A stretch of DNA of 64,000 nt from Climacium dendroides (lineage: Eukaryota > Streptophyta > Bryopsida > Hypnales > Climaciaceae), in contig OX467089.1 of assembly GCA_950106755.1 (NCBI GenBank), positions 5,086,501-5,150,500 on the forward strand. Reading direction: 5' to 3'. The position numbers were made by a program, and so were the translations under genes. Shown here one piece after another: positions 32,216 through 63,641 of the stretch. Each line of letters begins with the position of its first letter. Positions within the stretch are counted from its first letter, which is position 1. The notes beneath the pieces are model-generated. The model did no database searches. It was not told the origin of the DNA and saw only the letters and a program-made list of their open reading frames with translations.

Positions 32216-32244
32216 TTTGGGGCAACTAGTTTGAGTTTAGGAAG

Positions 32245-38516: not shown

Positions 38517-38526
38517 AGGGGGTGAA
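38515..38526 (+). promoter_or_regulatory. Polypurine tract of the young element
   Basis: AGAGGGGGTGAA lies directly before TGTCG of the 3' LTR and would prime plus-strand synthesis. Confidence 0.8.
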
Positions 38527-40894: not shown

Positions 40895-41047
40895 ATGAGC
40901 AGTTTATCTATAAATTCTGAAACTAGCAAAAATGCTAGAGACGAGAGAGCAAGAAAACATGCCGTTGATAAAAAGCAAAAATTTGATTCAAATATAAATT
41001 TAGAACGTGCCTCACCTAGTTGGAGGAATCCTTATCAGTATGGAGAA
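40895..41047 (+). pseudogene. N-terminal piece of element B gag, cut by the 21-kb insertion
   Basis: A charged, Asn/Lys/Arg-rich reading starts shortly after the primer site and ends at the 9-bp sequence TATGGAGAA (41039-41047). The same nine bases at 62145-62153 open the continuation in the same frame. It is interrupted by foreign DNA rather than by point mutation here. Confidence 0.65.
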
Positions 41048-41105
41048 GGGGAATGCTGGTATGCGAGCGGGGGGCTGTGAGCGGCAAGCTGGAAGCGGGC
41101 ATTAG
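41048..41105 (+). repeat. Left terminal inverted repeat of the 21-kb element
   Basis: The part GCTGGTATGCGAGCG matches the right end at 13 of 15 positions. GAGCGG and AAGCGG motifs follow. Confidence 0.5.
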
Positions 41106-41139
41106 TGAGCAAGGAGTGGTAATATTGGAAGAAAAAAGA

Positions 41140-41420
41140 ATGGGTTTAAGAAAAAAGTAGGATTAAAAAAATGAGATAGTGGATGAAAGAAGGAATGAAA
41201 GCGGATTTGAAAAATGGATGAAAAAGTAGATGACAATGGATGAATGTAGTTGGATTTTTGGATGAAAGTGGATGAAAGTGGATGAATGTAGTTGGATTTT
41301 GGATGAACATGGATGAGAAATGGATGAAAGTTATTGGGATTTTGGATGAATGTGGATGAAAAAGTGGGTGAGTGTGATTGAAAATTTGGATGAAAGTATA
41401 TAATAAAATAGATGAAAATC
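41140..41420. repeat. GGATGAA-type minisatellite
   Basis: Many irregular copies of GGATGAAAGTGGATGAATG and shorter variants fill this stretch, just inside the left terminus. Confidence 0.7.
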
Positions 41421-42920
41421 AGTCAAGGTTAAAGACATTCCCATTGTTGAATTTAACTTGGTGTTTTTTATACTACAAGGCCATAGTCCATAGTATTATA
41501 GGATCCTATCACCGTGGGAATGTTTAACCCCTAAAGGTTCTTAACTATGTTTTTATCAAAACCACTTCAGAATTGCCATTTCTACTACAAGTACCAAATT
41601 TCAACATTAAATGAATGAATTATGAATTTTCAAAGTGTTGTGTTGGAACCAATAATTCAAAGCTAACAATATTGCTTCATAACTTTTGCACTTTCAAAAG
41701 TTTTAAATCTCTCCTAATAGATAGAAATAACAAATGTTGACATTTTATACATTGTTTGTAATATAAATTTTTTGAACTTCTCTCTTAATCATTAAAATCT
41801 TTGAAATTTCTACTTCCCTTTTTCCAATAGATAGTCAAGATATTTTTTCAATTTTCTGTATTATCTCAAATTTGATAAGAAAGGAGGGTTTATATTGTTT
41901 CTAAATGAAAATAAACAAAATTGGTATGTACCATTATATATCACATGTGATAAGTATAGAAAACATTGCACCACATAGACTCCATGGAAGAAAAATTTGT
42001 ATGACTTCTTGAAAGTATGATTCTTTGACTTTGGTAGATACTCCCTCTATTCCACTAAAAAACTCCAAAATTTTTTAGGAATTAATTGTATTTTCAGTCT
42101 TAGTACCAATGATACATGCATTCAAAACCCAATAATCCATCCTCTAGATCTATGCAAAATCTTTAGCTTAGGCACCATCATTTAGACACCTAAAATCCAT
42201 GAGAAAAGTATTATATTCGAGCATAGTCCATGAATGTTGCCAACTCATCATTTTTGATGATTTAAAGGTTGGTGGCAACAATGAGATTTTAGAAATATTT
42301 AAAATATCTACAACAAGGAAACCTAACCCACTTCATGAATGGTCAATTTCCAAAATGTTGACAATAATGGGATTCCTGATATTCCCTTCCTATCCAGAAT
42401 ACCTACAACAAGGAAATTTGGCTTATAGCTAGATTGCAAGTTCGTCTTTGGAATTTAGTGCTAGTTTCGATAGAAGAAACCTGGTCCACATCCAAATTGC
42501 TAGTCCACATTCTAAATTTGTTGCTTAGTATTGAAGTAGATTAGGAATTTATGATTTAGATATAGAAATTGGATTGCAAGAGATCATGTTTTAGTTAAGG
42601 AATGTTGGCCTTAGAGCACAATGTTGCAGTTGTGGAGCAAAAATTTAGCTTACTATATCACATCCTAGTAAGCAAATCTTCATAGCGCCCAAGTAATCAT
42701 TGTTGTTTACAGAAGCAACAAGTACAAGGTGGGCCTTTTGTGGGCAAGGCCAAGCTTGCTAGGAGAAGAATGCTCCTTGATAGCTTAACTTGCTTACTCA
42801 ATGATTGAAATCAACAAATGAACTTTTTAGTGGTACATGAATTGTATGTAATTTAGAGTTGTTTAATGGGACAAAGGGAGTAATACATATGAAAATTTTA
42901 CACTTCCACTATTTAGTTAT
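41421..42920. other. AT-rich DNA inside the 21-kb element, no gene
   Basis: Short open frames only. Inverted ACATTCCCA / TGGGAATGT motifs bound about 41430-41530, possibly a small MITE. Position 41531 begins TTAACCCCTAAAGG, like an R1-type end, but no partner was assigned. Confidence 0.4.
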
Positions 42921-43583
42921 TTAACCCCTAAATGTCCAAGGCACCAAATTTTGGTGTCGACAATATTTTGAAGTTAAATAAAACCTATCAAAGTTTTCAT
43001 TTTTAGTAGTTTCTATTTTCAAAAAAATTCTTTTGAAGTCTAATTTTAGCATCAAAAATCTAATTTTGAAAATGATTATTTATGATTTTTCTATTCAAGA
43101 TTTTGGACAAGGGGGCCATTTGCAATCTTGACTTTCCATAGTGTTGAGGGCTTTTGAAAGTGAGCTCAAATATGCTAGAATTTGAAGAAAAAATCACATT
43201 AGAAATTCATTTAAACAAAATATAGAGTAGACTTTGAAAAGTCATAAATTGATTAAGATTTTGCATGTTAGGCCCTTTATCCTCATTTTTTTTGTGACCA
43301 ACCTTTTAGATTTGACATGTGAAAAGAAGATTGAAAGACTTCAAATCACTTTTGCAATTGTAACACCCTCATGATCAAACATTATAATCTTTCAATCCAT
43401 AAGTGATATGGTTGTGTTTTCTCTTAACATGTCTTAACATGCTATCTCTAACATGTTAACTTTAGAGATTGTACAGTTACAATTCCAAAAAATTGATACA
43501 AACTTATCAAAATGTTGGCTTTTTGTTCAATTTAGAGCAAATTTCTAGAAGCTCAAAAAAGGCCTTGGGAATTCAGGGGTTAA
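42921..43583. repeat. Dispersed repeat R1, copy 3, with TTAA flanks
   Basis: Best preserved copy. It starts TTAACCCCTAAATGTCCAAG and ends with the near reverse complement, CTTGGGAATTCAGGGGTTAA. TTAA flanks CCCC...GGGG on both sides, as expected of a piggyBac-type TTAA duplication. Interior aligns with 660-1349 and 3540-4110. Non-coding. Confidence 0.65.
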
Positions 43584-44338
43584 ACACAATATAGCTATAA
43601 AACATTCCCCAAAGACTTAGTTTCCATCTCTAGTTTGAGAAGTTCAACGAACTGAACCATGAAGTCATTACTCATGCCTTCAGTAAAAGAATAAGCTTTT
43701 CTTAACCACTTGCAAATTGCTTGAGTTCAAGATTTAGCAAAGACAGATAAGTTGAAAGGCTTGCAATGGAGAAACCAGAGGTCCTAGGTTCCCTCCTAAA
43801 TCCTATATTCTTCTTTCACAAATGAACCATTCCAAGTTGGTCAAGGAATGTATGACTCACAAATACAACGCCTACAAAATAGAACAAAACGGTCAAAAAC
43901 AACAGAACTCACCCTGCAAAAACAAAACAAAAGATAGTACTAGAATCCGAAGCAAGTCTAATCACTGTGCCACTGAACATTTCATCATATCCACTGGCTC
44001 ATATGCAGAAAGTAGACATTCCACGTTACAAGCACTGCTTGTGCTACACAAGCTATTACTCCACCCCCAATTGAATGGTCGGCGATTTCAAAGCTTTAAA
44101 GCACAACCAACTATAATATCTCAAGGCACTTCGCCAATCTTTTAGTATATGCGTGTACTTCGCCAATCGAGTTCCTCGCATAAGCAGCAACCATCCAGAG
44201 AACGCCACGGCATGATGAAATCAATGGAAATTGAGGCCATTGACTCTCACAAGCTGAGAGACTGATGTGTTGGACATTTGAATGTTGTAGCACTTGCAAT
44301 TTGAACTCCAAACCAAATTATAATTCATGACCGAGAAG
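43584..44338. other. Non-coding DNA downstream of the minus-strand genes
   Basis: Probably holds the 3' untranslated region of the minus-strand gene ending at 44339. Open frames here have no family resemblance. Confidence 0.4.
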
Positions 44339-46304
44339 TTACCAGTACTCATCGCCAAGGCCACCATGGAGAAAGTGGAACTCGGTTGCATACGGCACCC
44401 CCACGCTGTAGAGAGCAAAAAAGATGGCCACGGAAAGGCCAAACACAAGAAAGAGCCTGTAAGGATGGAGACCCTCGTTTAATAAAAGATAGGACTCCAT
44501 TGCGTCATCGTCGTTGTTTTCAGCTACTTCTTTAACATGAAGATTCACTTGCACCATCGGGCAAGTGAGGAGGCCAAAGATCACACCCACTGCTGTTGCT
44601 CCCAGATGAGTCCTGCAAATGCGCAACCACAGTCGAAAATAAAAAAATAATCAGAGAACAGCCATTGAGGATCACAAAACCAGTAGCTAATTGCAAGTGC
44701 CTCTACCTCAAATTGAAATGCATAATTTCCATGTCTTTTTTCACATGATCCCAAGTACAATCTTCAATATGATCCTCATGGATTGAAAATTTTAAAACTC
44801 CATTCGACAATCATAAATTGTCATAAAAACTACAACCACACGTCAATTCTTCTCAGCAATTTCATTGTATAGAATGATGGGCTCCAACATGCTACTGTGT
44901 CTCATTTTCATCGGGCAAAAGAACCTTCCAATTTTCAGAACACTGATTAGTCTCTCCCCTTCAGCGGATATGGACACAAAAAGCGGGTGAGAGTACGGAA
45001 CTTCTAGGACAGGCAATGCTAAGCGTTAATATGAAAGATCTAGGAACGTGCTCCGGCCATACCTAGTTCATATTCCATGACAAACGTTCATCTACAAACA
45101 TCGTCACACATTGTAGACCTTGAAACCTAATGCTTTGGAGTAAGCTTCATACGAGTAGTTCAGAATTAGATTTCACTAAGTTAAAGGGAAAATTGGAGAA
45201 CGGAACTAACCAAAGGTCCACGTGCAGACACTGAAGCAAACATCGACTAAAAATCTGCTTGACAGCATCGTCATCGTTTGTTGGAAGTTGAGCTTCCACA
45301 TAAAGTCTCCAGAACTTCGCCTGCAAATAAACCTTTGTAAGTCTCATCTAATCTCCACTTTTTCTAAAACAAGTAGCTGCAAGTGCTCTTCCAAGAGTTC
45401 ATGCGAGTACTTCTAAAGTCCAATCTCTGATAATGTTTGCTGCTGAACAATCTCCTCAAATAATTGCTTATTGAATCGCAGACTTTGGACATGACAGGTG
45501 CATGGTAAAATATGTAGAACTGTACCGATGTTAGGAATCTGGAAAGCAACTCCTCGTAAATTGGAGCAGCATCACCAATCGCCTTTGTCTGCTCAGATAC
45601 ACCATTCGAGTTGTTACGACCAAAACCTCATCAAATCAAAAAAAATGCGCGAATTACCTCTCGAATACATTATAAATCACGAACAAATGCTCGTCAAATC
45701 CGGCCAGGAGTGGGATGCAATGGCACAATCGTTGGGTCTTAGCTGCGTGCACACTCTGAATTTAGCCCACTACAAAGCCCAAAAAACGGCCAAACGGCAC
45801 AGCTCACCAGTCACTCAAATTCATAGCAATGTTCAAATCTCTTACCTGAGCTTCGCTACAAAGTCCATTCAAGGCCTCCAAATCGTACGGGTTTGCTTCA
45901 AGAGCCTCCCGAGCACGACGCTCCTACCCTAACCAGAAGCAAAAACACCAGATCATGAACCAAACTGATTACCCATACCTCCAGCTTACTCAGTAGTTTT
46001 GCTCAAATAAAATCCGCACAAAATTCATAAAAATTCACAAAATCTCCAATCTGTTCCACATTCAAATAACAGTTTCTTGAAAATTAAAAGCTGTACAAAA
46101 TAAAGACCTTTGAGCGCCACTCAAACTAGAACCAAAAGCAACCACAAAAAATACACAAACCAACTTATCACCACAATTATTATACACCTCCAGCTCATTC
46201 AGTACTTCTGCGACTCAAAAATCCTCACAAAATTCAGCAGCTTGACAGAGAAACTAAGCCCTCGCACATTAAAATCAGAAACTGCAACTCACATTTTTTG
46301 ACAT
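44339..46304 (-). CDS. CstF77/Rna14-like N-terminal fragment fused to a two-helix membrane tail
   Basis: Predicted exons, read on the minus strand: 46304-46293, 45923-45846, 45588-45526, 45320-45211, 44612-44339. All have GT-AG borders and sum to 537 nt (178 residues). Exons 2-4 match the first HAT repeats of cleavage-stimulation factor CstF77: EALEANPYDLEAL, then APIYEELLSRF, then AKFWRLYVEAQLP and AVKQIFSRCLLQCLHVDLW. The real factor scaffolds mRNA 3'-end processing and is over 700 residues, so this is a truncated piece. The last exon instead codes two hydrophobic segments (ATAVGVIFGLLTC and LFLVFGLSVAIFFALYSVGV) of unknown origin. The start is uncertain: the same frame is open upstream to a TAG at 46512. 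Likely a captured, chimeric gene fragment. Confidence 0.6.
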
Positions 46305-46511
46305 GTAAGTCGCGCTGTTCGACACGATAGAAGCTCCTCCGCTCGGCGCCAAGGACGTAAGCTGCCCTTCATCCGCCGGAGGCACAAAGACAGCTGCAGT
46401 TCCATCTGCGTTGTGAATCCCGTTGCCATCGCGAACCTTCGTTCCCTTGTCCGAAGATGACGAAGAAGAAGAGGAGCTCGAGTTCCTTTGCAGAAGACTT
46501 CCCAGACCATC
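46293..46511 (-). other. In-frame open segment linking the two minus-strand genes
   Basis: Directly after the TAG that ends the alveolin-like reading, the same frame stays open for 73 codons (Ser-rich, then a Gly/Ala/Pro-rich part) up to the GT donor of the CstF77-like gene. Composition looks coding. Either the TAG is a mutation in one 8-exon chimeric gene, or this is 5' leader. Confidence 0.45.
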
Positions 46512-48054
46512 CTAATGGCGGTGCTTGTGACCGTGCGTGATGAGGTTGAAATCACCGGGGTTGACAAACTCTCCAACAGGCGCCTCGTAGTAGCTGCAGA
46601 GCAAGCACACAATCCACAATCAAGCGAAAGCACTTTTAACATCGAATGCAAAAACAGTGGTCCACGAAACCATTTCAGTCACTAATTTGAAGCTCAAATC
46701 CATACCAGTCATAGTTTTTAGGAGAAATTCTATACACTTCAACGTCACTTTGAATGAAACACGTCGTTCTGATGAATGACCATGAACAGCAGAGTTCCAA
46801 AAGCTTGTTGTCAGAGTGTACTGAATACTTACTTCCCAGTGGGAACCTCCACCATGCGCGTGACCGGAACCTCCCTCACAACAGGCACCACAACCCGCTC
46901 CTCCACATCCTCCGTGATGACCCGCGGCACCTGTAAGAAAATCCAATTACATTGGAAACTCTAGTTAAAATGGCAACTTATACAATCCAACTTATTAAAT
47001 CCACATTTCTCCAAATTATCCACATTAAGGAATAATGGCTTTGGGCATCACATTGGGGGCAATCAAATGTTTGCCTTACCTGTTCGATTCTGGGCACATC
47101 AACGTATTCCACTTCCGGGACCATATCCGTCACTTCCCGCTCCTCTTCCACCACGCGGTACACAATCTCCATCCTCGTCTTGGGCACTTGACGCACCACT
47201 GGCACGCGGTCAATCCTCTCGATCTCGTCGTAGATGATTCTCATCTTGGGGACAACGATGATGCGCTCCTCGTGATGCACCTCCTTCACGAAGTCCGTTT
47301 TCTCCACGGTCTTCATCTCCGGGTAGCGCTGAATGACTTGCACCCGAGTCTTGAATTCCTTGGGCTGCAATTAATTAATCAAAGCGAGCTATGGTCAGAA
47401 CCGTACCAGCATTGGGATAATAGCTTGGCATGTTCTCAATGTATGTAATGCGAACCTTATTCATTACAGTGGCGGGTTTATTTGGAACTGGGAATGTAGC
47501 TTCAGCCACCCTATTGAAACCTTAGATCTATACCATTCCCATTTTAAAGTTCTAAGCACTCGACAACACATCAATGTTCTGAAATACGCCATTCAGTAGT
47601 GGTCATGAAATTTTCAGAGCACCTCAAAATCACAACTTTGGCGCTCTGATACACAGCATTCTAAGGATTGTTACCATAATATCGAACCAAGGTCCCAACC
47701 AGGGCAAGCTAGACCTATTTTGCGAGGGACAGTGGGACTTACGAGGTCTCGGATATTGGGGTTGGGGCAATAGGCTTCGCCTTCGTGAGTGACAAGGGTG
47801 CGGGTTCGCAACTTGGCCATTTCCTCATCAGTGTGGCCCAGCATTCCGCCATAGTGATTGTGGTGGTCGTGATCCAAGAGACCTCTGTCTGCAACAGAGA
47901 TGTTATCGCCGTTGTTGAAGGGAGCTACTTTTGGATGATCGACCCGACCAGTGGCTGCTGCTTTGGCAGCATCCGCTGCTCGGCCTACAGGACTCTTGCC
48001 TTCCAGGAGCCCTTCCTCGGCACCCAAAGTTGCACGCTCAGTTGCAGTAGCCAT
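46512..48054 (-). CDS. VPV-repeat (alveolin/IMC-like) cytoskeletal protein
   Basis: Four exons on the minus strand: 48054-47743, 47364-47080, 46930-46833, 46593-46512. Phases agree and give 258 residues. Residues 1-104 are Ala/Gly/His-rich with GLLDHDHHNHYGGMLGHTDE. Residues about 105-232 are charged repeats with Val-Pro motifs, such as IDRVPVVRQVPKTRMEIVYR and ERVVVPVVREVPVTRMVEVP, typical of alveolin/inner-membrane-complex or articulin-like cortical proteins. The tail is His-rich. In alveolates such proteins support the cell cortex; a role in a plant, perhaps in flagellate sperm, is inference. The start is the first ATG of an open exon about 670 bp from the divergent plus-strand gene. Confidence 0.6.
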
Positions 48055-48726
48055 AATTTATACTTCGCCTTACTCTGCACAACACCTGCAGCGCAAGAAC
48101 CCGGTCAAATTACAACATTTAGCCTCAAAGACCTTTTGGAAGGCTTCGCATTATAACAAGTCGCCACAACTACAGAAGTAGGAACAGGTGGTTACAACGA
48201 CACGGTTCTTACAATATTCTCATACTGATGATGTATTAGATAAGAGTCTAATACAGCTTCCTCCCATGCCTCCGACACGACTACGACAGGTGAAGCAGCT
48301 GCAGGAGACGACCCTAGCGAAGGCGTAGAAGATGCTGGCGCGGGCGCTGCTGGTGCTGGAGACCCCGCGTGCTGGTGCTGGAGACCTATTACGATCATGG
48401 CCAGCACCTCTTCACTCAATCAGTCACCAAAAATTCGCGAGTCAGGGTTCGAATTTGAAATGCAGCAATCGAGTAGACACCACAAATCGTGCTCCACAAA
48501 CGCTGAAATGTTGAGATGGGACGTGGGACAGACTTCATCCATTTTCAGGTAACCCTAACCTCATGCAACGATTACGGCTTCACTTACACTTGCTCTGCCG
48601 CCCTTCCCCACCGCTTTCTTCTTCTCTTGCACCGACTCTACTTCGGCCATCGAAATTCAATTGCGGACTGCCGTGTACATACTCCAAATTTCTCGAATAG
48701 GGCTAGTTGTGGATATTTTCCTGAAG
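48055..48726. promoter_or_regulatory. Divergent intergenic region, possible two-way promoter
   Basis: It separates the minus-strand alveolin-like gene from the plus-strand ParB-methyltransferase-like gene. It is richer in G and C than its surroundings, with short open frames that do not resemble proteins. Promoter function is inferred from position only. Confidence 0.35.
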
Positions 48727-51700
48727 ATGGCGGAGAGGGTCCTGAGGTCGAGGAGCGCACAACGAGGGGAAACTTCCGGCGGTGAAGCGAAGAAGACTGC
48801 TTCCAGCGTGCTAGCAAAGGGGGAAACTTCCGGCGGTGAAGCGGAGAAGACTGCTCCCAGCGTGCTATCAGAGGTAAGTGGGATCGATGATGCGCAAAGT
48901 CTACTGCCGTGAGGATACAGTCTCGGGACCGAGAGGGCTCTCTCGGAGAGTTGGGCACGAACAACCATGTCTTCTAAAAAGTATGTGGGTTCAATATTGC
49001 GCGAAGTCCGCTGCCCTGAGGATACCGTCTCAGGACCGAGAGGGCTCTCTCGGGGAGTCGGGCACGGACAACCTTGTCTCGTAAAAAGTTCTTGGGTTCA
49101 ATATTGCGCAAAGTTTGCTGCCTTGAGGTTACCGTCTCGGGACCGAGAGGGCTCTCTCGGGGAGTCAGGCACGGACAACCTTGTCTCTTGAAATGTCCTT
49201 CTCAGAATATAAAGAACCTTCGATAGAGCTACATGATTGGTTTCGGTGCATTGGGATATAGTAACAAATTCTTTTTAAACTTCTAGTTTGGAAATGCTCA
49301 AAGGTAGGAGACAGTAAAGTATCCTCTTGGTCCAGAGAGGGCTCTCTCTAGGGGTCTGCCTCAACAGACACTCTCTTCTGCATCTGTCTATGAGATGTGA
49401 GGTCTTAGATGAGAGCCTTGTCATAGCGTCAAATGCAGCACAATATTGCTGATCGGAGCTTCATATACAACATAAAAAAAATTAGTTCTCAATCTGATTT
49501 CAGTCCATGCGTAAACACTAATGACCATCCAATACCGTCTCGGGACCGAGAGGCCTTTCTCGGGAGGCCTAGTTTCGGAGAATGTGTCTTGTTTGATTAA
49601 TGTTGAAGATTCTAGCTAAGGTGGAGCTTTGAAGGTACTGAAAGCTTGTGTTGCGAACGTCATTGGAGCTTCACTAGATGTTTATGGATTTATTTGGATC
49701 ATTATGTAGAGCTTGAAAAGTGATTATTGTTAGTTTGAAGCCTTGATATGTGCAAAGGATAGTGTCCTTTGAAAAACCCCTCGGGCCCGAGAGGCCTCAT
49801 TCGGAGAAGACTATTTGAAACACCTGATATTTGCATTTGTCCAAGATAATCACAAATAGGCCAATGATTTGTTTTGGATTGTGTTGTAGGTTGAAGCTCT
49901 AGTGGCTGAGGAACATCCAGTAGTACTTATTGAGGTGGTACCTGAAGCAATGGTGCATGATGGACGCCCCAAAGACTTAGAAGTAATGCCAATTTCTCAC
50001 CAAGTGTCTGGATCTATATTACAAGAGGGTAGTCTCCAACCGGAGATTATTTCCGATGATGAGTTAGAGGACTATGAGATTCAAGGAGTGCCCAAGGATG
50101 CAATGGAAGATGACATCAGGCGGTCCCAAAAGCTTGACACTGTGTCCATCCTTCATGGATTGAGATTGACGTCTAATGATACTTCTCGGATGAAAATTCC
50201 TTTATGTAGATTGGTTCCGATGCCAATGGTGCGACCTACTCTTGTTTGTGACTTGACTTTGCTGGAAAATCAATTCAGTGGAGGATACGAGGAAGGAGCT
50301 AGAGTCTTCTATGTTTCTATATCAAACGAAGATGGCCAGAGTGGTGTTTTCACACCTGCCGAGAAGGACGAGTGGGGACCAATTTGGAATGAAATCAACC
50401 ATGATTTCAACACTTACCTCATGTCACAGACAGCATTGCGACATTTGGTGGATCACAAGTTTTACGTATGCGATGGAAATCATAGAAGAATTGCATGGAT
50501 GAATCACATTATGCGATTGCATGCAACAGAGAAAATATGGCACATCTCTATGGATTCAATCGTTTTAGACACACGGAATCGAATTGGTTTGACGATGCAG
50601 GCTATGCATGATATTAACATGTGAGTGTTCCATTCTCCACTATGCTTGCATTTTTATGATGTACTAAAATTCTATGAATTGTAATATGATATAATATGAT
50701 TTCTTTCCCATGGTGTGACAGGCAAATAGAGAGTTGTCATGTGAAGACCAATCTCGTACACACGTTATATCGAGTTTAGAAGTATGGTGTCATGGACATT
50801 GAGAAGTTTAAAGAACTTCTATCACCGGAAGATGTAAACACCTGTTTGATGGTTACCCGGTCTAAATGGTACTCTATGTCCCTCGAAGTCTTCACATCAT
50901 TCATTTTCAAGGTATTACTTCCACCATGTTTTTGTAATGATTTCAAGTGTTTTTATATGAATTTTTATATGTCGATATAAAAATGTTTATGTTTATGTTC
51001 TTTTCGTGTCTATTTGCAATTTTGTAGCAAGACATATCTGCAACAGCCGATATTGCTGTTCGTAAATACAAAGAGAACACTCCTTGTGAAGAGGTGATGT
51101 CAGATGGTGTTGCAACCGCAATGAGGAGCTCTATCAAAGATTCCACCAAGAAGTTTTATAAAAAAATGTCAAAGATGGTGGCTGTTGCTAATCCGGCTCT
51201 GGGAAAAGACTGGCTTCTTGAGGTATGCCTAAACCATCATTGATCAAATCTGCTCATATCTTCATACATGATGTATATTGAGTTCTAATTCTCATGCATT
51301 GCATTCTTGCAGATCCAAAGGCATTGGAATCTTTTTGCAACTCCAGAATTAACCTTAGAAAAATTACAAATGATAGCCACAGCCTCTACAAGTGCGGAAA
51401 ACAAGATTAAGTGGCTCAAGTGGATGAATGCATCTGGTCCTACTAGAGAGGCCCGACGCTTTCCTTCTCGTCCTATCAATGAAGAAAAATTAATGATATT
51501 TTTGGCAAAGGCTTGTTGGTATGCTGGGGTAAGTTTTCTTTTGATAAATTTTTAATTATATTTTATTTCAATATCCTTCAATTATATTAGTATGATTGTG
51601 TATAACGTACAGGAATGACCTAAAATTGATGTCTAACTTTGTATTTAGATGGAAGAGGCATCATGCGAGATGTTCGACAATATTGTTCAATCTGACAATA

Positions 51701-54293
51701 TTCCAATCAACATGTCCGTTCCTACCGAGCCAGAATCATTGATGGAGTATATTGAAGGTTGGAGAATGAAACTTTGGGAGACAGCTTACACAGGTGTTTT
51801 CAAGGGAGGAGATACTTTTAAAAAATCCGATAATTTCAAAGAGTTCAAAGGGGCTATGCTCGCTGTCAAGCGCTTGATATATAGGTTTGAAAACTTGCCA
51901 TTTTACTTACTTATGTTTTGAGGCTGATGTTATGGATTACATGCACATCTAGATGAACTAGTTAGTAGGACGTCAAATTGTAGCTTAACCAATGTAGCTT
52001 TCATTGTTTAATGTAGTTTTTGTCTTTCATATTCTTGGAATAATTATGTTGGAATCTCTATGGACTTTATATACTATTTTATTTAGGTAATTGATTTTGA
52101 ATTTAATATGAATAGGTATTTCAAGTTTGAGTTGTACGCCAAGAAAGCTATCGAGAAGAAGGATTTGCCACCTTTTCTTACAACATGGTTAGATAGATCA
52201 TCATCGGATTGTATGTTCTCGGCTTATCAGCTACGGAATTGGACGACTCCACATCTCCAAGCTTGCCCATGGTACTTGGAATGCAATATAGGATGTACTC
52301 CTGCTGAAGAAGAAGCTCTCTTCAAGACATTGACAGAGAATGCTATTACAGAGCCGGAGTTCGATGAATTTGCTGGATTAGACCCGGAGGCCAAAGCCAA
52401 AGCTATAATCAGACGAGAAGTAGCTGACAAGAAAAAAGTGGATCGATTGGAGGAGACAAAGAAGCGGATGGAAGAGAACAAGAAGAAGCGCTTGGCCAAG
52501 AAGGTTGATAGAGAAGAGGAGAAGTCCAAGAAAAAAGGCACAAAACAAAAGGCAGAAGAGTCGGTGCATGAACCAGCAACAAGTGGCATTGGAATGAAAG
52601 ATACTTCATCCGGATTTTCCCTCACACAGGATCTTTTAGTACATGGTCTGACAACAACCATTCAAAATTTCGGCCCTATACCTGATATTGACGAGTGCAT
52701 TCTCAACTTATCGGTGGAGAGTCTCCCGAGTGATAATAAGGCCTTTGATTTGGTCTTGACATTCTTAGACATGGTAAGTTTCTATTTCGTATACTTTTAA
52801 TATTGTGTTCTAATTTGTTGTCAAGTAGTTTCCAAATTCAATTAGAATTCAAATGTGCTTTATTACATATTATTTTAGTTTCTTATTTATTTGGAACTAA
52901 CGATATTTAAACATTAATGTCTTCTACAGCATTCTAGTGATAAGGATAGATATTTTGATGGTATGTTAAACACGAAGCAGGCGGTGGACCTCATCATCGT
53001 GGATGTCCCCGAAGGCCTTCATGTTCCAACCGTTTCAGCTCCGCCGAGCCCTATTCCAAAATGGAATGAGTTCAAAAAAGATTCATTGGTTCCTATTTTC
53101 GACTTTGCTCAGGAATATCTCCATGACAAGGGGGGCCTTCTTATCATGTATCCAACAGCTTCTGTTCGTCACAGAAGTTTTCTTCTTGGTTGTTGTGAAA
53201 CCTACAGATTTAGAATAATCATGACATGGTTAGGGATGAATCATCTGCATTTGACATCGCCAGCCGATCCAAAGAAGACAGTATGATTAATCCTAACCTC
53301 ATATTTTATTTCCTTTAATTTACAATTGATTTGCATTTGTGCTACTTTCTAACTTCTGAATTTTTGCAGACGATGCAATTTTCTATCTCTCTTCTTGTGA
53401 GGGAATCTGGGCCAAAGACTGATATTGATTTTCCATTCCAACATGTTCCTTCCCATGAAGAGGTAGGTGTCAATATTGCTCGTAATGACATCTTGCAAAA
53501 CTTTTGCAACCGCGATGATGTAACCATGAATGGAGACATTCCGTGGCGAGGTCCTCGGGAAAAATCTCGACACTTCATGCAAATGCTTATAGAAGGGCTA
53601 TCACAACCAGGCGACGTTGTTGTGGATTGCGCAGCAGCTACAGGTAATTCCTTCTTTGAATTTAGTAATTGTGGGACTCTTATGTAATTTGAAATGTGTT
53701 CATACTATATTTTTCTTATCTGTGTTTGGTTCATTTCAGGTTCAATTATTCAAGCATGTCGTGCAACTCGACGACATATACTAGCCTTTGAGGAGGATAA
53801 ATTGATATTTGATGCCCTCATTGCACCTGTCGTGCGCAAAACTATGGTACCTCCCAAACCAGCCCAATCAAATCCTTCAACATTTGACGTGGATGAAGAA
53901 GTGGTTGTTCCTGATCGTATCGTGAAGACAACCCGATTCAGTAAGTAAGTCTATCTTGCTATTGATGCATTTTTTGTTATATAATCAATTTGGGAATTTT
54001 TGTCTAATTTTCTATTTCTTTGGATTTAAAGGCAAGCCCAAGAAGTGAGGAACTTCCAGCATGTGCCTTTTTTTGGAAGACCAGGATTTTTTCCAAGTCC
54101 TCCCAAATCTTTTCACCTACCCGTGTATGCTGAGGCGTTGTCACGAGACTTTGTGGCAATGGATCCAAATCCAACTTCACGAGCATGTTCAGTGCAACCT
54201 CGAGCTTTAGAATTTATAGATGATTATGCAATAGAGACAGATTTGGATTCATCGGCTACAGAGGATAGTTCAACGTCGAATAGCTCTATTTGA
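48727..54293 (+). CDS. ParB-like / DNA-methyltransferase-like fusion gene, 11 exons, one nonsense codon
   Basis: Exons: 48727-48873, 49890-50620, 50722-50911, 51028-51222, 51313-51528, 51649-51884, 52116-52773, 52930-53280, 53370-53643, 53740-53944, 54032-54293. All junctions are GT-AG, phases agree, and the sum is 3465 nt (1154 codons plus stop). Residues about 155-295 look like a ParB/sulfiredoxin fold, with VCDGNHRRIAWMNH near 242. About 667-720 is a Lys/Glu coiled coil. About 790-1030 is a beta-class amino-methyltransferase-like domain: a motif IV position reading VDVPEG instead of D/S-P-P-Y/W, then motif I-like VVVDCAAATGS. The altered motifs suggest binding without catalysis. An in-frame TAG at 50777-50779 (codon 312) would truncate it. 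ParB-methyltransferase fusions are known from bacteria and phages. Exon 1 is the least certain. Confidence 0.65.
48885..49200. repeat. Three tandem 107-bp repeats with palindromic cores
   Basis: The cores lie at 48922, 49029 and 49136, spaced exactly 107 bp. Each contains CTCGGGACCGAG (CTCAGG in copy 2) overlapping CCGAGAGGGCTCTCTCGG. They sit in the first intron of the ParB-methyltransferase-like gene, just past the exon 1 donor. Confidence 0.85.
49310..49810. repeat. Further single copies of the palindromic motif
   Basis: Diverged or partial copies occur near 49330 (CAGAGAGGGCTCTCTCTAGG), 49539 (CTCGGGACCGAGAGGC) and 49780 (CTCGGGCCCGAGAGGC), in the same intron as the 107-bp array. Confidence 0.7.
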
Positions 54294-56251
54294 TGTATTG
54301 TATACACTACATCACTATTATTGTGTGCTTAGCATTGACCTCATGATGTTGTCTTCATTTTTTTGGTCATTGATGCTTTGATTACTTTCAATGTCGAACT
54401 CGGATTCTACATTTTTGAAATGGAGGCATTATTTATACATATAATTGCACTAGTATAGAGAATTTTTATACATTTTGTTCAACTCTATATCATATATAAG
54501 GCCTATTAGTACTCTGTGTTCATATGAAATACTTGTATTACTCAAAATTCTCAATTTGTCATGGGGCTTCTCGTGTCTAATGATATTTCAATGATGTATT
54601 ATTCAAACTTAATGACCTACAATTAGATTGGTCTGAAAGGTTTTCTCCATTGCATTCAATTTGTAAACACCTAATGAAACCAAGTTAATTATTGGGGATA
54701 GGGCGTATGCCCCCTCCCCTCCCAGATGCCTCTCGGCACCGAGAGGTTCCTCGGGGCACCTCCAATATGCGACATGAGCGGGACCATGATGAGCACCAAT
54801 CAGGGTTCCCGAACTCAAATAAAAAAAAATTGGAGACAGGGCGTATGCCCCCCTCCCGTCCTAGATGCCTCTCGGCACCGAGAGGTTCCTCGGGGCACCC
54901 CCAGTATGCGACACGAGCAGGACCACGACGAATACCAACGTAGGGTTCACAAGAATGATATAAAAATTCATGTTTGGACATTACCTGGGAGTTTCGGATT
55001 GAAGGTGTACGATTGGATCTCTTTGTTTGGGTCTCTTAGTTTGGGGTCGCACGATTAGGTCTTGTAGTTGGGAGGGTTGGATTTCTAGTTCGGAACGAAC
55101 TTGTGTGGTGTTCTAGGTTGGACATGTGGAGGTATATTATTTTACATTTTCAGAATTATCGTGTTCTTGAATTAAATTGGTGAATCTTAGTTGTACTTCA
55201 AGGCTTATGTGAATTGTAAAATTGAATTCGGTATTTGGAATTATTGTTGGAATAGAATACATCTAACTATAATCATTAGGCAGGAACTACTGCTTCATTG
55301 TAAGTGTATGATCCCCTACAACGATGGTATAGTTCCTAGTCTTCATGTATTTTGGAATTTTCCTGTTGCAACTGGAAGACATGTTATATGTTTCCTATTA
55401 ATAAGTGCTTTGTGATTTTTGGTCGTCTTACTCTCCATATTCTTTCTGAAGTGGATTTATGATTTTAATGCCATTGCCCTATTAGCTTTAAAGTGGCGGT
55501 GTTTGTGGGCATTTAATAAACTTCTTCTCCAAGTTTGTTAACACTTGTGCTCAATATAAATTCCCATTGCCACATGGTGAGCAAGTTATCAATAACAAAA
55601 AATTGTGCTAGGTAATATTTTCGTACAGGACATTATCAATTCAAACGTCTAGCATCCATCACTGGACATTGCGATCTACTAGACACTACAATCTAACTGA
55701 CACTGTATACTTCCAGACACAATCTGCCGTGATGATTGAAACCCTGATCTCGTTGAATGTATGAGCACCACATTACCAAACTCCTGAACTCAGCTCCCTT
55801 ACTCATATTGCACCGGCTTCTTCATCGTACCTGTTCTCATAATCATTGGTGGTTCTTGTCCTTCTTTTCGTCAGTCATTAAAGCCAATGACCGTCATGAT
55901 TGTTGCCGTTGATACACAAATCTAGTCTAAAATATTAAATGGTTGATTCTCATTGAAATGAAATATTGTACTTTTAATGTTAGTTATTGCTGAGAACGCC
56001 AAGTGAACATCTCTTAATCTTGCATTCTATTTTTGTATATTTGCACGGATTTCATTTATTACAACTCTAGCGGTCCTCCCTACATTCTCAACGGATTTAC
56101 GTATTTTAGAGGGTGTTTCGGTTAATACCAAAGCAACTGAAGCAGTGACACTCAGGTTCACTGAGTTCCTTGTCGTATGATTATTGTAGCTCGTGCGGTA
56201 TGCGATTGATGCAGTTTTGTGCTTCAGAAGTAGAGTGCATGAAGCGTCTAA
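54294..56251. other. Spacer between the two plus-strand genes
   Basis: AT-rich DNA with no coding resemblance, except the GC-rich palindromic repeat at 54697-54960. It probably includes the 3' end of the methyltransferase-like gene and the promoter of the transposase gene. Confidence 0.4.
54697..54960. repeat. Two 138-bp direct repeats with the palindromic core
   Basis: GGGCGTATGC occurs at 54701 and 54839. Each unit carries the perfect hairpin CCTCTCGGCACCGAGAGG followed by TTCCTCGGGGCACC. The core is related to the one in the 107-bp array. Confidence 0.8.
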
Positions 56252-56473
56252 ATGGAATACAATCAAATGGCAACTGTTAGGGCAAATGGACAAGGGGTTC
56301 CAATTTCTTTTCCGATTGGTGATTTGGGATACGCTGTTGTGAGTTCCCTTCGACTAAGTGCTCGCTTTCTTCTTACTGAAAACTCGTTGGATATTGATGA
56401 GGAAGTTTTTGATAGTTCAAGTGGTGAACTCACGCATACTATAGGTCAAGAGCCGATTGTCTCTTCCCACTGA
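56252..56473 (+). CDS. Possible N-terminal part of the transposase gene
   Basis: A 73-codon open frame beginning MEYNQMATVRANGQG and containing LGYAVVSSLRLSARFLL. It is in a different frame from the long transposase reading that opens at 56428, so an indel, a small unseen intron or a separate leader peptide would be needed to join them. I do not recognise it. Confidence 0.25.
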   Translation: MEYNQMATVRANGQGVPISFPIGDLGYAVVSSLRLSARFLLTENSLDIDEEVFDSSSGELTHTIGQEPIVSSH

Positions 56474-56526
56474 GGCAGTGGCATCTGCATCCGGGTAGGT
56501 ATTTAGCATATGGCTTATCCAAATCC

Positions 56527-59500
56527 ATGGTTGGAGCACCAACTCCAGAAGGTACCACTAGAATATCTAGCACTAATACTTTTGAAACAGCGTTGCTTAA
56601 CACTATAAAGATCGAGCCAAGTGTTGAGGTCATTACCATTGATAGTGATGATTCTGATGGTTCGTCGCCACTCTATAAAGTTCTACGACCAACTCTGCCT
56701 TTAGGAGTTCATGGGGCATCCTCATCTATCTCGCCTACTCCAGTCTTAGGGACACCATCCTCAACTTCTCGTGGATCCTCTATTATTTCATGTCTACAGA
56801 AGTTGTGCTACACCAAAGGTTCTAGGAATCCGTTTAAGAAGGTCGACTGGAACTCAATTAGAGTCTGTGTAGTCCAATTTGTTCCACCTTTGTTCAATGG
56901 TGATGTGATATTTGAATTACCACCCGCCGGAGATGTTTCGGGAATTAACAGTCATGCTAAGCTTCTCACTGGAATGGAGAAACGCTACGATGGTCACGTT
57001 TGGACAAATCTTCATACGACAAATATAAAGAATGCAGACAGTCTGACATTTCGGTTGGCATCTTGCGTGGGCCACCTACGATGCGACAACCCGAGTTGTG
57101 ACTACCTAACTCGAAAGCACCGTGTAGCTCTTATCAACGAGACTGAATGGGATGGTTGTTCTCCTGCTCCATTTGAGGTTTGTGCCATTCCTCCTATTGG
57201 TTCCACTATCACATGCAAGATTTGTGCGACTGCTCCATCGTGTATTGGTAGTTGTCTTGCGAAAATATATTATGTAGTTGGGTCACAGGACATGACTCGG
57301 GCTTGTGTTCATTTCGGTATTCACAATTACCCTGTGAAAGATGGAGACTGCCGGGACTCCAAGGAGAGAACTCGGTCCTTGATATCAGACCAAGTTGAGC
57401 GGAACCCCTCTGGAACAAATTCCGCTATTGTCTTAGAGGCTAGCAAGGAGTTCCTTGGAGAGATGCTACTTCGAGCTGAAGGAGCTACACCTACCCCATT
57501 CGGATTACAAGAATTAATGCCTGTTTTGGAGAAATGCAAATTCATGAGTTCCCCAAGTATTCGCAATGAAGTTAGTACATTCAAGTACTTCCGCCGCTTT
57601 GGAGTCATGGACAGCATCACAAAGCTTCGTGGCTGCAGCAATTGGGCTTTTGTACAAGAGAACAAATTCCCTGGACAGGGATTTGACTCTGACAAAGTCT
57701 TCGTGTTCAAAATGTCAGAGGTTGGCCTTGGAAGTGACGTAGACTTGGTATCACGTATGCAACCTGGTGGTGACCTTGAGGACGCATGGATCATGTTTGA
57801 TCATGTTAGGCGAGTGAAGCTCTGGACTACAATTGCGTGTCATGTTTATGACACGACCTATTGCTGAGTTATGACTATTGCGGTTTGCGATATGCAATCA
57901 GAAGATGTAGTTGCCCAATGCGACTTCTGGAAAAACTTAAACGTCGTGATGGGTAGACATGGAAACACCTTGCCCTATTTTAAAGGCTTCATGGCTGATT
58001 CGGCACAAGCAAACTGGAATGCGGTGCGCATTGTTTACGGAAGTGGTGACCCAACAGAGCCCATGCCCAATCGAGAACGTACATGTTTATTTCATTGGAC
58101 TCAGTCAATGGAGAAACACACGAAAGCAGACATTCGCAGTGACCTTCAAGATCAACATCGAAAGTTGTGCAAACAATATAAGGATGCAAATTCCTTAGCA
58201 CAGGCAGAGATTAGGTTTCATGCAATTCGAACGTGGTGGCATTCATCTGGAGCCACAACCGAAGAGGGGCTTCGCCGTTTGGAGTTGTGGTTAGCATTTT
58301 GGCACTTCCGGTATAGACAATGGGAAGCATTCATGGACACTGTAAGATTCTTAATCATCCTATCCTTCATTTGTTTGTTTTGCCAAGCTAGGATTCAGAT
58401 TTTGGGGTTATCTTACATTATTGCTATTCATTTCTTCCATGAATGCTTCCTGTCTTCAATTATTGAAGTACTTCATGTAATAACCCTGCCCTGTAGACGT
58501 TAAATCAAGGAAAGAGTGGTACTCTTTATTTGTAATAGCTTTAATCCATGCTCTACAAAACAGGGACTCACTGAAGATGAACTCGGGCTTGTTCCTACTT
58601 GCAACCTCGCGGAGACCGTACATAACAAATGGTTGCAACAATTTGGAAAACGTGGCTCTGATTTGTATGTCGCCACTGTGGATGACTATGTTCGGGCGTT
58701 CATGCAAATGGTTAGATATTACCAGTTTCTAAAAGGTGAGAAGCCGGGAATTGATTCAAGAAAAGAAGAACTCTTGCTTCGTGTAGCACAGAGATATGCC
58801 CAACGTACCGGTAATCCGAAAGGACTGAATGATGCCATGGCATCTGTACCACGTGTTCAAGAGTATTGCACTAGGAAGCCCCATTTGGAAGGCGAGGAAG
58901 TTTTTGGATCTGAGAAGCGAATGCCCAATCTTCCACCTGGTTCTGAATATGATTCACATCGTCCCAACAAAGTGAATTTCTCTCGACCCCGTGTTGGAAC
59001 AAGGGCCACCCCTGCACCCACATCGGTCATTTCCTTGGATCGGATTTCTGAAGAATCATGGCCTGTGACGCATGAAGATTATCCGGATTTGTTGGAATCA
59101 CCTAAGACAAGGTCAATTCCTTCAACTGAGGTGGCCTCCCATGTGAGGACTGTTCAAAAAACAGTTTGTGATGAGTCTGAATGGCATATTGCCCGCTTGC
59201 CTAAGACGTCTTCAAAGGCATGTTTTGCATTGCAGGCCATTACGCGAAAAAAGTGTGTTGCAAAGATAGTGCAAGGCAATAGGGGAACAACTGCACCTAC
59301 ATATACTGGCAGCATGGACAACTATAAGAAAAATAGGATTGAGAGAATGCAATTCTTTTTCTGCAATGATGATATATCGCGGTGCGTCAAAGGTTCTCGA
59401 CGAAAATGGGTTTTATCAAAACCGGAAGTACCAGACATATGGCCGGTGCAAGTTGGAACCAATCTTACGCCCAAAGAGATCCTAGATCTTCAAAATGCAG

Positions 59501-60030
59501 GATTCTGTCTTCCGCAGCGTCTTGAAATTTCCCCTCGTAGGCTATTTGGAAATCATGATCTGCCACTTGATGTTTTGGGACTTCAAGTTGTAGAGTCACC
59601 TGCAGAGCACCCTAGTACACGGTCAGGAAAGAAGATTCGGAGGAATCCAAAAGCACCTACAACAAAGCAAGCAAACAATTGCGCCTCCGCACTTACAATG
59701 AAAGCAGTGGTTCGTGAAGTTACTATGGTACCGCATCCAGGCTTCGGATGCATCATTGCCTTGGACTCAGGTACACCGCCTGCCATTGAACGTTACATGA
59801 TCACTGTAACTGCATTCCCTGAATGCACTTGCCCTTATTTCAAGGAGATGGCAACAAAGGCTCTAGGAAAAAGAGGGCAATGGGCTAATTGCAAGCACTT
59901 GTACTTTTTGTTCACTGGAGTTTGCCAATTGGATGCAGAAGTAGATCTTTTTATTCATGCTCCAAGCTTTAGCTTTAACGAAGTGAAATGCATACTTCAG
60001 AGTGGTATCTTGAAGCTTAAATCCAATTAG
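56527..60030 (+). CDS. Mutator-like transposase with zinc cluster and SWIM finger, one nonsense codon
   Basis: Exons 56527-58341 and 58564-60030 are joined in phase; the open frame extends upstream to 56428, so the true start is unclear. About 1093 residues. Residues 30-40 hold a SUMO-interaction-like VEVITIDSDDSD. A WRKY/GCM/FLYWCH-type zinc cluster follows (CVGHLRCDNPSCDYL ~178; CKICATAPSCIGSC ~230; CVHFGIHNYP ~262). The DDE-type core has IACHVYDTTYC (~434), FMADSAQANWNAV (~487) and CLFHWTQ (~520). A SWIM finger near 1026-1050 has CTCP and, 19 residues on, CKH. This order is that of Mutator-like transposases, which cut and paste DNA and make 9-11 bp duplications. Codon 447 is TGA (57865-57867), consistent with CGA changed to TGA. 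The large first exon is single-copy in appearance. Transposase identity is well supported; exact subfamily is not. Confidence 0.75.
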
Positions 60031-60390
60031 TATACATTTCTACTTCTTGCCGGTTGGTGCTAGCATATTGTAGTGTAGCTTTGGATGATGTGCTCCAAAC
60101 TTGTTTCATGTAAGAATTGTAGTGAGACTAAAAGGGCCACTACTTCATTTCAATTGTCATTTGTCCATTGCACCTTGCACTATCATGCATTCGTGCATGA
60201 TTGCCCATCCACGCTCTCTAGTATGATTTGTATATATATCTGGATATAAAATATTCATAGAGGGTTGTTTAGATTGTTATTGATAATTGCAACAAAATAA
60301 AATGGCCTTCCCTCGTCCCAATCCACTAAAAATGACCTTGCCTGAATTCCCTTTTCACAATGAATGGAGTAGGACAACGGCAAACTTCTA
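60031..60390. other. 3' flank of the transposase gene
   Basis: AT-rich, with AATAAA near 60296 as a possible polyadenylation signal. No gene. Confidence 0.4.
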
Positions 60391-60464
60391 AATGCATAAG
60401 GTGACCACCTCTAAGGTTCCTCTCGGTACTGAGAGGTAACCTAGAGGTGGTCACCTTATGCATT
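60391..60464. repeat. 74-bp near-perfect palindrome
   Basis: Arms 60391-60427 and 60428-60464 match at 33 of 37 positions by eye, and the first 23 bases are exact (AATGCATAAGGTGACCACCT onward). The centre reads CCTCTCGGTACTGAGAGG, a version of the same core as in the 107-bp and 138-bp arrays. Confidence 0.85.
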
Positions 60465-62091
60465 CAAAATTCTGCAACATTTATCTAAACTTGCTATGGT
60501 TGTAAACCCATTTTTTATTAGCACTATCTCATGCTAGCATTGGTAGAAGTTAGCTTCCCTTGCAATACATATGAGTACTAATTATTGATGACATGATTGC
60601 AAACATAATTGAAATGCATTATTATCAATAGGAAGTTTGGCAACATGCTAATGCCTTTTATATGATAAATTGGTAAAGTGGTCGCGCATGGATGAACTTA
60701 ATTAATCATTTTTACCCTATCACATGGAAATGATAGCCTAATTCCAAGCCTTCTAACTATGGTTGTTCAATAGTTTAAGTTAAATTGTTCACCTGACCAT
60801 ACATTTAACAATACAATAAGCAGATGTCCATCCAGCAAAAGAAAGTTACCCTAAACCCTAAATATAATCCTCCTAAAAAATTTAACAGATATTCTATAAA
60901 CAGGCCATGAAGGCAATCATAAATACCCTAAACCTTGAACCCTCACCCTAGAAGTATGCCTTTCTTTCACCTTTAAAGGAGCAGTTCTACTAGTTCACAG
61001 TCTGAGGTCCACAATTACATTGAGATCTTAAAACCACAGCTATAGGGGCACACCTAAACCCTAAAACCGTGGTGAAAGGTTATATTATGTGGCTTGATAC
61101 CACGGTTATAGGTTCACACCCAAATAATTTTTTTGGTGTAGATTTCGGGTCTCCTGTCTTGGATCCACGGTGATAGGTCCATTTTCATGGTCATGGGGGC
61201 ATGAATATAAAGTCATCATGTTCTACTTTGTAAAACTTTGGAAGGCCAATCCTTGAAGAAAACAAACTCCTTTCTCCCTCCCATGCCGTTGATCTGGATA
61301 TGGATAGGGATACTATACACAGACAAATACGATCCGGATACGAGAATCAAGATATAGTTCAAATACAATACAAATATAGTACGGTACAGATATGAGATAC
61401 GGAATATAGTTCAAATGCAATATAAATACAATACAATGTAGATACAAAATATGAGGTACGGATACGGATATATCCCATATCAAATGTTACCCCTAGCCCC
61501 ACCTGAAAATTAGAGAAGGGGGGGAGAGGGGGAAACGAGAAATTTAATATACCAAAAATTTGAGCTTATTGCCTTATTGGTGGGAGGTAGAAGAATTCAA
61601 TTTCATTTTTTTTTTGGGAGTGGATAGTGAGACATTCTCACTATCCACTCGAAAGATAGGCCACTAAGCTTTGGCACCTAAACCAATAAATTGATATAGC
61701 ATTAAAAGACCAATCCCCTACACAAATTGGTTTGTCATAATCCCACCGTAGAGGTGTCCAATGTCATTGTTGAAGTTACTCACCAACAATAACAAATAAT
61801 TCTTCTAAGTTCAATCAATATAACCCTTCCCTCCATGTGGTCAATGGTCATAAAATATTTTCACACATATTCAAATATTAGTCCACCCTAAACTTTTGAG
61901 GTTAGACTTTTTAAATCCCCAAATTTTTAGACTAGATTTTTTATTACCCCCAAAGTATGTTGATTTATGGAAAAAAGGCCCAAAACTTATAGTCGACTTT
62001 TGAAAGTAAACACCCAAATTTAACAAAATAAATAAATAAATAAATACCCTAAAACTGCACCAAATTACAGAAAAAGGCTCTAAATCCATGC
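60465..62091. other. Right subterminal region of the 21-kb element
   Basis: No gene. It has AAACCCTAAA-type short motifs near 60850-61060, degenerate GATACGGATA/CAAATACAATA repeats at about 61290-61490, and the hairpin at 61618-61650. Confidence 0.4.
61618..61650. repeat. Perfect 14-bp stem hairpin
   Basis: GAGTGGATAGTGAG, loop ACATT, then the exact reverse complement CTCACTATCCACTC. Confidence 0.8.
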
Positions 62092-62144
62092 TCCATGCTC
62101 CAATTCCACGCTCTTGCTCTACGCTCGTATACTAGCTTCGTTGG
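62092..62144 (-). repeat. Right terminal inverted repeat of the 21-kb element
   Basis: Read inward on the minus strand it contains GCTAGTATACGAGCG followed by GAGCG-rich DNA, mirroring the left end at 41055. Confidence 0.5.
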
Positions 62145-63196
62145 TATGGAGAATTCTTTCGGTCAAGGCCATTTGCTAGCCAAATAGAAGAAAAAAACAG
62201 TTTTAGAGAAAACCAAGTAGAGAATGAACAAAACCAAATCAAATTAGAAAACCAGAATACTGTCCGAGTAAGTGAGGAAGTCTAAGGTCCTAATAATACA
62301 AATTATCCGAATTGGATTCCAGATGCTTCCTCACCAGAAGGCTCTCAAAAAGGGCAAAGTGAGTAGGAGTATTTAGAATACAAATTGGAATATTAATAAT
62401 AATTAGCCTAGGAATAAGGTTTTACCATTAATAGATTCTCCACTAGGTTCTTTCCAAGGTAGGACTAGCCCTATAGAATTGTCAAAAAAACAACCAAATT
62501 CGGTTGGAAGTCCCACTGGGAGTCTGGGTAGGAAAAGAGTAGAAATTACCGTAGAGCTACGTAATAAGGAAGAGTTAAAAACAATTTGTTAATAATTTAA
62601 ATTTAGAAAGATTTTCATATCCTAGTGAATCCTCCCAAGAGAGTGATTCATCCGAGTCAAGTATTAGAGGCCAATTTGGAGAGGAAATATTTACCTCGGA
62701 AGTCATGGCAGTTCCTGCCCTAATTCCAATTGTAATGCAGCCTGGTGATGAAGCAGACCGGCTGTATTCGTTAGTACCATTTCCAAATTGGAATCCTATA
62801 TGTTTCTACAGGAATAGATGTAGCCACAATTAAACCAATTGTGAAAGATTCCAATGCAACATTAGAAGCTCAGACAGTTGAGATATCAAAACAATTAGGA
62901 AATTTGCAAGTAAATATGGCCAAATCGTCGAAAAAGAAGGGTCAACCAAATAATGACCGCGCTCATATTTGGTGTACAAATTGTAGAGAACATGGGCATA
63001 TGTTGCCTGATTGTCCCTCCCCACCTAATCAATCCATGAAATGTCAATTTTGTGGTGGTAAGCATGAGACGGTGTCATGTACAAACCTACAGGCTAGTTT
63101 ATTAAATCATGCTAATAATAAAAATAAAAATAGCCAAGTATATCAAGTAGATGCAAAACCAAATAATAATCAAAATTGGGATAACAATTCAAATTG

Positions 63197-63237
<41 letters not shown>

Positions 63238-63641
63238 GGCATTGAAGGCGAAATTTTAATCCTAATTACAATAAAGGCCAAAATTATAATGCAAATCCAA
63301 ATTATGTCAACCCAAATTTTAGTCCAAATAACTTTAATAATGGGGGATTTATTAATAATCCTAACCAAGGAGTAGCTCAGATACCCACAAGCAATAACCA
63401 AAGTTGGTCACAAATGCCATTTGGGAATGTTAATCAAGGTCCACCAACTTATGGTGGACAAATGCCAAATTGGGGGCAGAAGAAAGGAGTCATATGTTAT
63501 AATTGTAGGCAACCGGCACATTACAAATCAGAATGTCCTAATGTTAAGGTGAGTGAGCCTTACGTACCTTTATGTGGAAATTGTGGCCAAGGTGGCTATA
63601 CAGCCACAAAATGTAATGGCCCACGCACTCGGGGGGTGTAG
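62145..63641 (+). pseudogene. Remainder of element B gag with four zinc knuckles
   Basis: It resumes the gag frame at TATGGAGAA. An Asn/Gln/Glu-rich stretch meets stops (first TAA near 62281). Near 62706 comes MAVPALIPIVMQPGDEADRL, but most of the capsid is missing. From 62841 to 63641, four knuckles are readable: CTNCREHGHMLPDC, CQFCGGKHETVSC, CYNCRQPAHYKSEC and CGNCGQGGYTATKC (His replaced by Tyr). An Asn-rich linker encoded by an AAT repeat separates knuckles 2 and 3, and a stop at 63243 breaks the frame. The layout equals that of element A's split gag. Confidence 0.75.
63197..63238. repeat. AAT trinucleotide microsatellite
   Basis: About 13 AAT units, coding poly-Asn in the gag frame. 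Confidence 0.9.

What the first reader, a model, noticed from the sequence alone, without database searches (positions are those of the whole stretch)
41039..62153. A giant (~21 kb) Mutator-like element carrying host-like genes
TATGGAGAA directly flanks both ends, the interrupted gag continues in the same frame on the far side, and the inner ends share an imperfect inverted repeat. A Mutator-like transposase lies inside. A 9-bp duplication is the family norm. The cargo (alveolin-like, CstF77-like and ParB-methyltransferase-like genes) makes this far larger and richer than ordinary elements of the family, and Pack-MULE-like.
Basis: partly seen in the sequence, partly recalled or inferred. Interest (0 to 1): 0.92.

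Follow-up and report, generated by a model that had tools for sequence, protein, structure and literature searches.

The report
Giant gene-carrying Mutator-like jumping element
A 21,096-base stretch of DNA bounded by a 10-base direct repeat interrupts a retrotransposon gene; it is likely one very large Mutator-type jumping element, because it encodes a (now broken) relative of Mutator-type transposases, and it also carries an unbroken four-exon reading frame, a piece of an RNA-processing gene and a probable DNA-methyltransferase gene.

The parts
41038..41047 (+). left copy of the 10-bp direct repeat GTATGGAGAA (probable target-site duplication)
   Evidence: only two copies in the window
62144..62153 (+). 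right copy of the 10-bp direct repeat
41048..62143 (.). the putative Mutator-like element, 21,096 bp
   Evidence: boundaries from direct repeat, inverted repeat and gag frame
41053..41069 (+). left arm of the short imperfect inverted repeat (element bases 6-22)
   Evidence: 14 of 17 matches in register with the right arm
62122..62138 (-). right arm of the short imperfect inverted repeat
41180..41394 (+). left subterminal array: 11 exact copies of TGGATGAA, strongest phasing at about 10.7 bp
   Evidence: no such array at the right end
45211..45923 (-). CstF77 gene fragment: exons 45923-45846, 45588-45526, 45320-45211 with both introns (GT-AG)
46512..48054 (-). four-exon reading frame of 258 codons, no lesion ('alveolin-like' is a recalled label): exons 48054-47743, 47364-47080, 46930-46833, 46593-46512
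   Evidence: no family match
49890..54293 (+). methyltransferase-like gene, ten exons found (first exon not identified), phase-consistent, one premature stop at 50777
   Evidence: N6_N4_Mtase E 5.1e-5 below cut-off, phrog_3008 DNA methyltransferase E 2.1e-6
56252..60030 (+). Mutator-superfamily transposase gene, one intron after about 58340; frameshift near 56470, stop at 57865-57867
40895..41047 (+). left part of the interrupted gag reading frame of the host retrotransposon
62154..63638 (+). right part of the interrupted, otherwise decayed gag frame, with zinc-knuckle-like motifs (recalled)

Best explanation
The stretch 41048-62143 is likely a single giant Mutator-like (MULE) DNA transposon that inserted into the gag gene of an LTR retrotransposon and made a 10-bp target-site duplication. 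In this reading its own Mutator-type transposase (shown as a homologue; now carrying a frameshift and a stop) would have recognised the short inverted ends and moved the whole 21 kb by cut and paste (inferred). Before that jump the element would have acquired genomic DNA of the host at the DNA level, since the CstF77 fragment still has its introns (fragment and introns shown; acquisition inferred). The methyltransferase-like gene, on the same strand as the transposase, would be either a second captured gene or an accessory gene of the element (undecided). With its transposase broken this copy is predicted to be immobile unless a relative supplies the enzyme.
Confidence: 0.7

Rival explanations
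1. A smaller Mutator-like element with the transposase is nested inside a larger segment, or two elements bracket host DNA; the outer ends then belong to a different or composite mobile unit.
For: The two end regions differ beyond the first 22-60 bases; the cargo lies in blocks of different base composition, 0.49-0.51 G+C at 47-49 kb against 0.32-0.34 at 41-44 kb; a dispersed repeat related to two others in the window lies at 42923-43581.
Against: A scan for inner direct repeats with inverted ends around the transposase gave at best 12 of 20 terminal matches with an 8-bp repeat, low-complexity or A+T-rich, found over a far larger search area than the outer pair.
Confidence: 0.15
2. A known-type large MULE with accessory genes (as in the Arabidopsis VANDAL elements): the methyltransferase-like gene is an old resident of the element, and only CstF77 and its neighbours are recent captures or later insertions.
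For: Transposase and methyltransferase-like gene lie on one strand, next to each other, and are lightly damaged to a similar degree (two lesions and one); extra reading frames are known in MULEs (PMC6446971, passages); a subterminal repeat array is present.
Against: No relative of the methyltransferase-like gene was found (0 of 2626 candidates; but that query's length excluded single-exon predictions), so residence in related elements is untested.
Confidence: 0.35
3. No transposition of the 21 kb: host DNA was inserted into gag by break repair, or the assembly is misjoined, and the repeat and inverted ends are chance.
For: Only one copy seen; imperfect ends; 9-bp repeats are common in control areas (816 of 2000).
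Against: Repeat, in-register inverted repeat, open gag frame and a transposase of the fitting superfamily coincide.
Confidence: 0.1

Closest known systems
Mutator-like elements (MULE superfamily) of plants and other eukaryotes
   Same: DDE transposase with IS256/Mutator-type fold match, zinc-binding domain before and SWIM-like motif after the catalytic part; direct repeat of 8-11 bp; imperfect or absent inverted repeats and extra genes are known (PMC6446971, passages)
   Different: transposase reaches no Pfam family (best chance-level match E 0.011 among 32 members); 21 kb long
Pack-MULEs
   Same: carries a multi-exon fragment of a host-type gene with introns, between transposon ends
   Different: keeps a transposase gene, holds a complete-looking four-exon frame, and is 21 kb; PMC6431247 says none of those reported by Jiang et al. 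2004 exceeded 7 kb (passages)
VANDAL / Hiun MULEs and Kaonashi (ULP1) MULEs of Arabidopsis
   Same: MULEs with accessory genes beside the transposase; VANDALs have anti-silencing proteins (PMC10398659, search listing only; PMC13317346, passages)
   Different: accessory gene here is methyltransferase-like; cargo also includes CstF77 exons
IS256-family bacterial transposons (ISCth4)
   Different: eukaryotic, intron-containing gene, other domains added, 7-8 % identity in the fold alignment
Giant cargo-carrying transposons of eukaryotes such as fungal Starships (recalled, not searched)
   Same: one mobile unit with many genes
   Different: Starships use a tyrosine recombinase (recalled), this a DDE transposase; much smaller

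Membership tests
Mutator-like element (MULE) | Mutator-type DDE transposase | tested here: met
Mutator-like element (MULE) | target-site duplication of 8-11 bp | tested here: met
   10-bp direct repeat; that it is a duplication is inferred, no empty site seen
Mutator-like element (MULE) | long terminal inverted repeats (not required: non-TIR MULEs exist) | tested here: not met
   only 14 of 17 bases in register, outer 5 unmatched; it would be of the short-TIR or non-TIR sort
Mutator-like element (MULE) | several copies with the same ends and different duplications | not tested
   own-genome search unanswered 23 of 23 times (last)
Pack-MULE | fragments of host genes between the ends | tested here: met
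   CstF77 fragment with introns; the parent gene in the host was not seen
Pack-MULE | non-autonomous, without transposase gene | tested here: not met
   transposase gene inside, though broken
hAT transposon | 8-bp duplication and hAT fold | tested here: inconclusive
DNA N4/N6 methyltransferase (cargo gene) | cofactor-binding part of the family | tested here: inconclusive
   N6_N4_Mtase 23.8 bits, cut-off 26.7; phrog_3008 E 2.1e-6
DNA N4/N6 methyltransferase (cargo gene) | catalytic [DNS]PP[YFW] motif | tested here: not met
   the place where I would expect it reads DVPE (by eye)
ParB-like domain (cargo gene) | match to ParB models | tested here: inconclusive
   Pfam none at E up to 10; phrog_1033 E 0.23 over 26 residues; fold model unusable, pLDDT 28.5
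Alveolin (cargo gene) | match to alveolin family models | tested here: not met
   no Pfam family at E up to 10 for the spliced protein

The most novel reading that the evidence does not exclude
A plant Mutator-like transposon that moves as a 21-kb gene island: it carries whole intron-containing host genes and its own DNA-methyltransferase-like gene, which would mark or shield the element's DNA against silencing, with the left-end octamer array as the binding platform; in effect a DDE-transposase counterpart of the giant cargo transposons of fungi.
Probability: 0.12. Interest if true: 0.85.

Novelty: new variant of a known kind. Interest (0 to 1): 0.55.

Why it matters
If confirmed, it raises the size of DNA that a cut-and-paste Mutator-type element can carry in one piece to about 21 kb and shows capture of a complete multi-exon reading frame beside the transposase, where a review notes no Pack-MULE above 7 kb in the first survey and calls capture of full-length genes exceptionally rare (PMC6431247, passages). 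It also points to a transposase family, with 74 relatives found here, that Pfam does not recognise and that routine annotation would therefore miss, and to a methyltransferase-like gene riding on a DNA transposon.

Tried and rejected
Own-genome search for other copies and the empty site: 23 requests, none answered; two waits of about 5 minutes did not help.

Empty site in related gag proteins: right gag flank, 0 of 792 candidates. Relatives of the methyltransferase-like gene: 0 of 2626 candidates, but the 923-residue query excludes short single-exon predictions, so this is no evidence of absence. Collections: transposase alignment in viral contigs, 130 stretches matched a pattern, none a relative; in prokaryote genome contigs, 181 stretches, 1 relative, L001, a 4.1-kb contig in a cyanobacterial genome assembly from an uncultured isolate, which I take for eukaryotic contamination because it has an intron; methyltransferase first exon and the 'alveolin' exon in viral contigs, none; transposase in plasmids, none. 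ParB fold by structure prediction: unusable. Rfam and tRNA scans of the window: none. A nested inner element around the transposase: no convincing ends. hAT was considered and set behind Mutator on the fold scores. No family was excluded by its absence from the fold list.

Not in print: eight paper searches showed no paper describing this element or a MULE with a ParB-methyltransferase gene (0 papers held its four terms); the listings are partial and the library is open-access only.

Full report
What was claimed. A 21-kb Mutator-like element with host-like genes lies at 41039-62153, flanked by TATGGAGAA, inside a gag gene.

The ends. TATGGAGAA is present at both places and nowhere else in the window. 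The identity goes one base further out: GTATGGAGAA, 41038-41047 and 62144-62153. This matters, because with a 10-bp repeat the inner ends line up without a gap: bases 6-22 match at 14 of 17 positions, whereas with 9 bp one end needs a shift by one. The outermost five bases do not match. Controls: 7 of 4983 random 80-base pairs of the window align as well as the two ends; of 2000 random area pairs of 300 x 300 bp, 816 contain a 9-bp direct repeat, 3 of them with an in-register inverted repeat as good and 5 with a local alignment as good. A weaker test was not striking: 20 of 400 areas reach 11 or more of 20 terminal matches beside a 9-10 bp repeat, and the real ends give 12. The best reverse-complement partner of the left end in the window is the right end, but an unrelated stretch near 38501 scores the same in direct orientation. 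The element so defined is 21,096 bp (41048-62143).

The interrupted gene. The left reading frame (40895-41047) continues in the same frame at 62154, where it is open for 43 codons; the other two frames are open for 10 and 7. Downstream the frame is decayed, with stops and an out-of-frame stretch; zinc-knuckle-like motifs follow in the same frame (recalled; Pfam gave none at E <= 0.001 for the piece 62775-63242). No related gag was found that could show the empty site (0 of 792 candidates). That it is gag is therefore the reading of the sequence, not a database result. An LTR retrotransposon with near-identical repeats (30082-32192 and 38527-40637, 99.95 %) lies just left of it.

The cargo on the minus strand. 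A CstF77 fragment has three exons (45923-45846, 45588-45526, 45320-45211) and both introns with GT-AG ends; the spliced 84 residues match human CSTF3 residues 19-101 of 717 at E 1.4e-19, and Pfam's Suf domain matched 40 residues (E 2.7e-6). No further part of that protein was seen in the minus-strand frames of 41001-49500. Introns mean capture of genomic DNA, not of a retrocopy (inference). Beside it, 48054-46512 reads as four exons with GT-AG introns and 258 codons without a lesion.

The cargo on the plus strand. Ten exons from 49890 to 54293 join in phase through nine introns, all GT-AG, to 1,104 amino-acid positions with a single premature stop at 50777; the first exon was not identified. 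The last third resembles DNA methyltransferases: Pfam N6_N4_Mtase 23.8 bits, E 5.1e-5, below the cut-off of 26.7; PHROG 3008 E 2.1e-6; PDB best DpnA at E 0.064. The usual catalytic motif is not evident (DVPE in its place, by eye), so activity is doubtful. ParB: no Pfam match, PHROG 1033 at E 0.23 over 26 residues.

Subterminal repeats. The left end has 11 exact TGGATGAA in 41180-41394, of 17 on this strand in the whole window; their spacing is best described by a period near 10.7 bp (resultant 0.82, best of 26 periods tried). Tandem duplication could give the same. The right end has no such array. Arabidopsis VANDALs have sequence-specific anti-silencing proteins (PMC10398659, search listing), which makes the array worth testing.

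Interpretation. The simplest account is one large Mutator-like element with its own transposase and captured genomic DNA. The steps shown are: the end structure, the frame continuity, the transposase homology, the cargo genes. The steps inferred are: that the repeat is a duplication, that the 21 kb moved in one event, that this transposase moved it, and that the cargo came from the host genome. Later nested insertions that enlarged the element are not excluded.

Known kinds. MULEs have 8-11 bp duplications, sometimes no inverted repeats and sometimes extra genes (PMC6446971, passages). Pack-MULEs carry gene fragments; a review says that none in the first survey exceeded 7 kb, that transposition efficiency drops beyond 6 kb and that full-length gene capture is exceptionally rare (PMC6431247, passages). 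MULEs with resident captured domains exist, such as Kaonashi (PMC13317346, passages; PMC2528002, passages). So this is a new variant, by size, by cargo and by an unrecognised transposase family, not a new kind.

Limits. The host is unknown; introns, the LTR elements and relatives in the databases suggest a plant, and L001 comes from an environmental assembly, but no call names the host. The decisive genome search did not complete (23 requests).

Noticed in passing
30082-40637: An LTR retrotransposon with 2111-bp repeats that are 99.95 % identical, flanked by CCGT on both sides, inserted just left of the interrupted element; a very young insertion.
   Followed up: partly
41180-41394: Eleven exact TGGATGAA octamers, spaced close to multiples of one helical turn, only at the left end of the element.
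   Followed up: partly
61618-61650: A perfect 15-bp hairpin with a 3-base loop near the right end of the element.
   Followed up: no
661-1351, 3528-4085, 42923-43581: Three copies of a dispersed repeat, about 64-72 % identical, one of them inside the element near its left end.
   Followed up: partly
44342-44650: A minus-strand reading frame of 103 residues with two hydrophobic stretches, possibly a further captured fragment; only weak Pfam matches (best E 0.023).
   Followed up: partly
L001:1-4101: A contig filed in a cyanobacterial genome assembly encodes an intron-containing relative of the transposase (46 %), so it is probably eukaryotic contamination.
   Followed up: partly
8576-8726: A near-palindrome of about 150 bp (90.8 % self-complementary in the self-comparison).
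   Followed up: no
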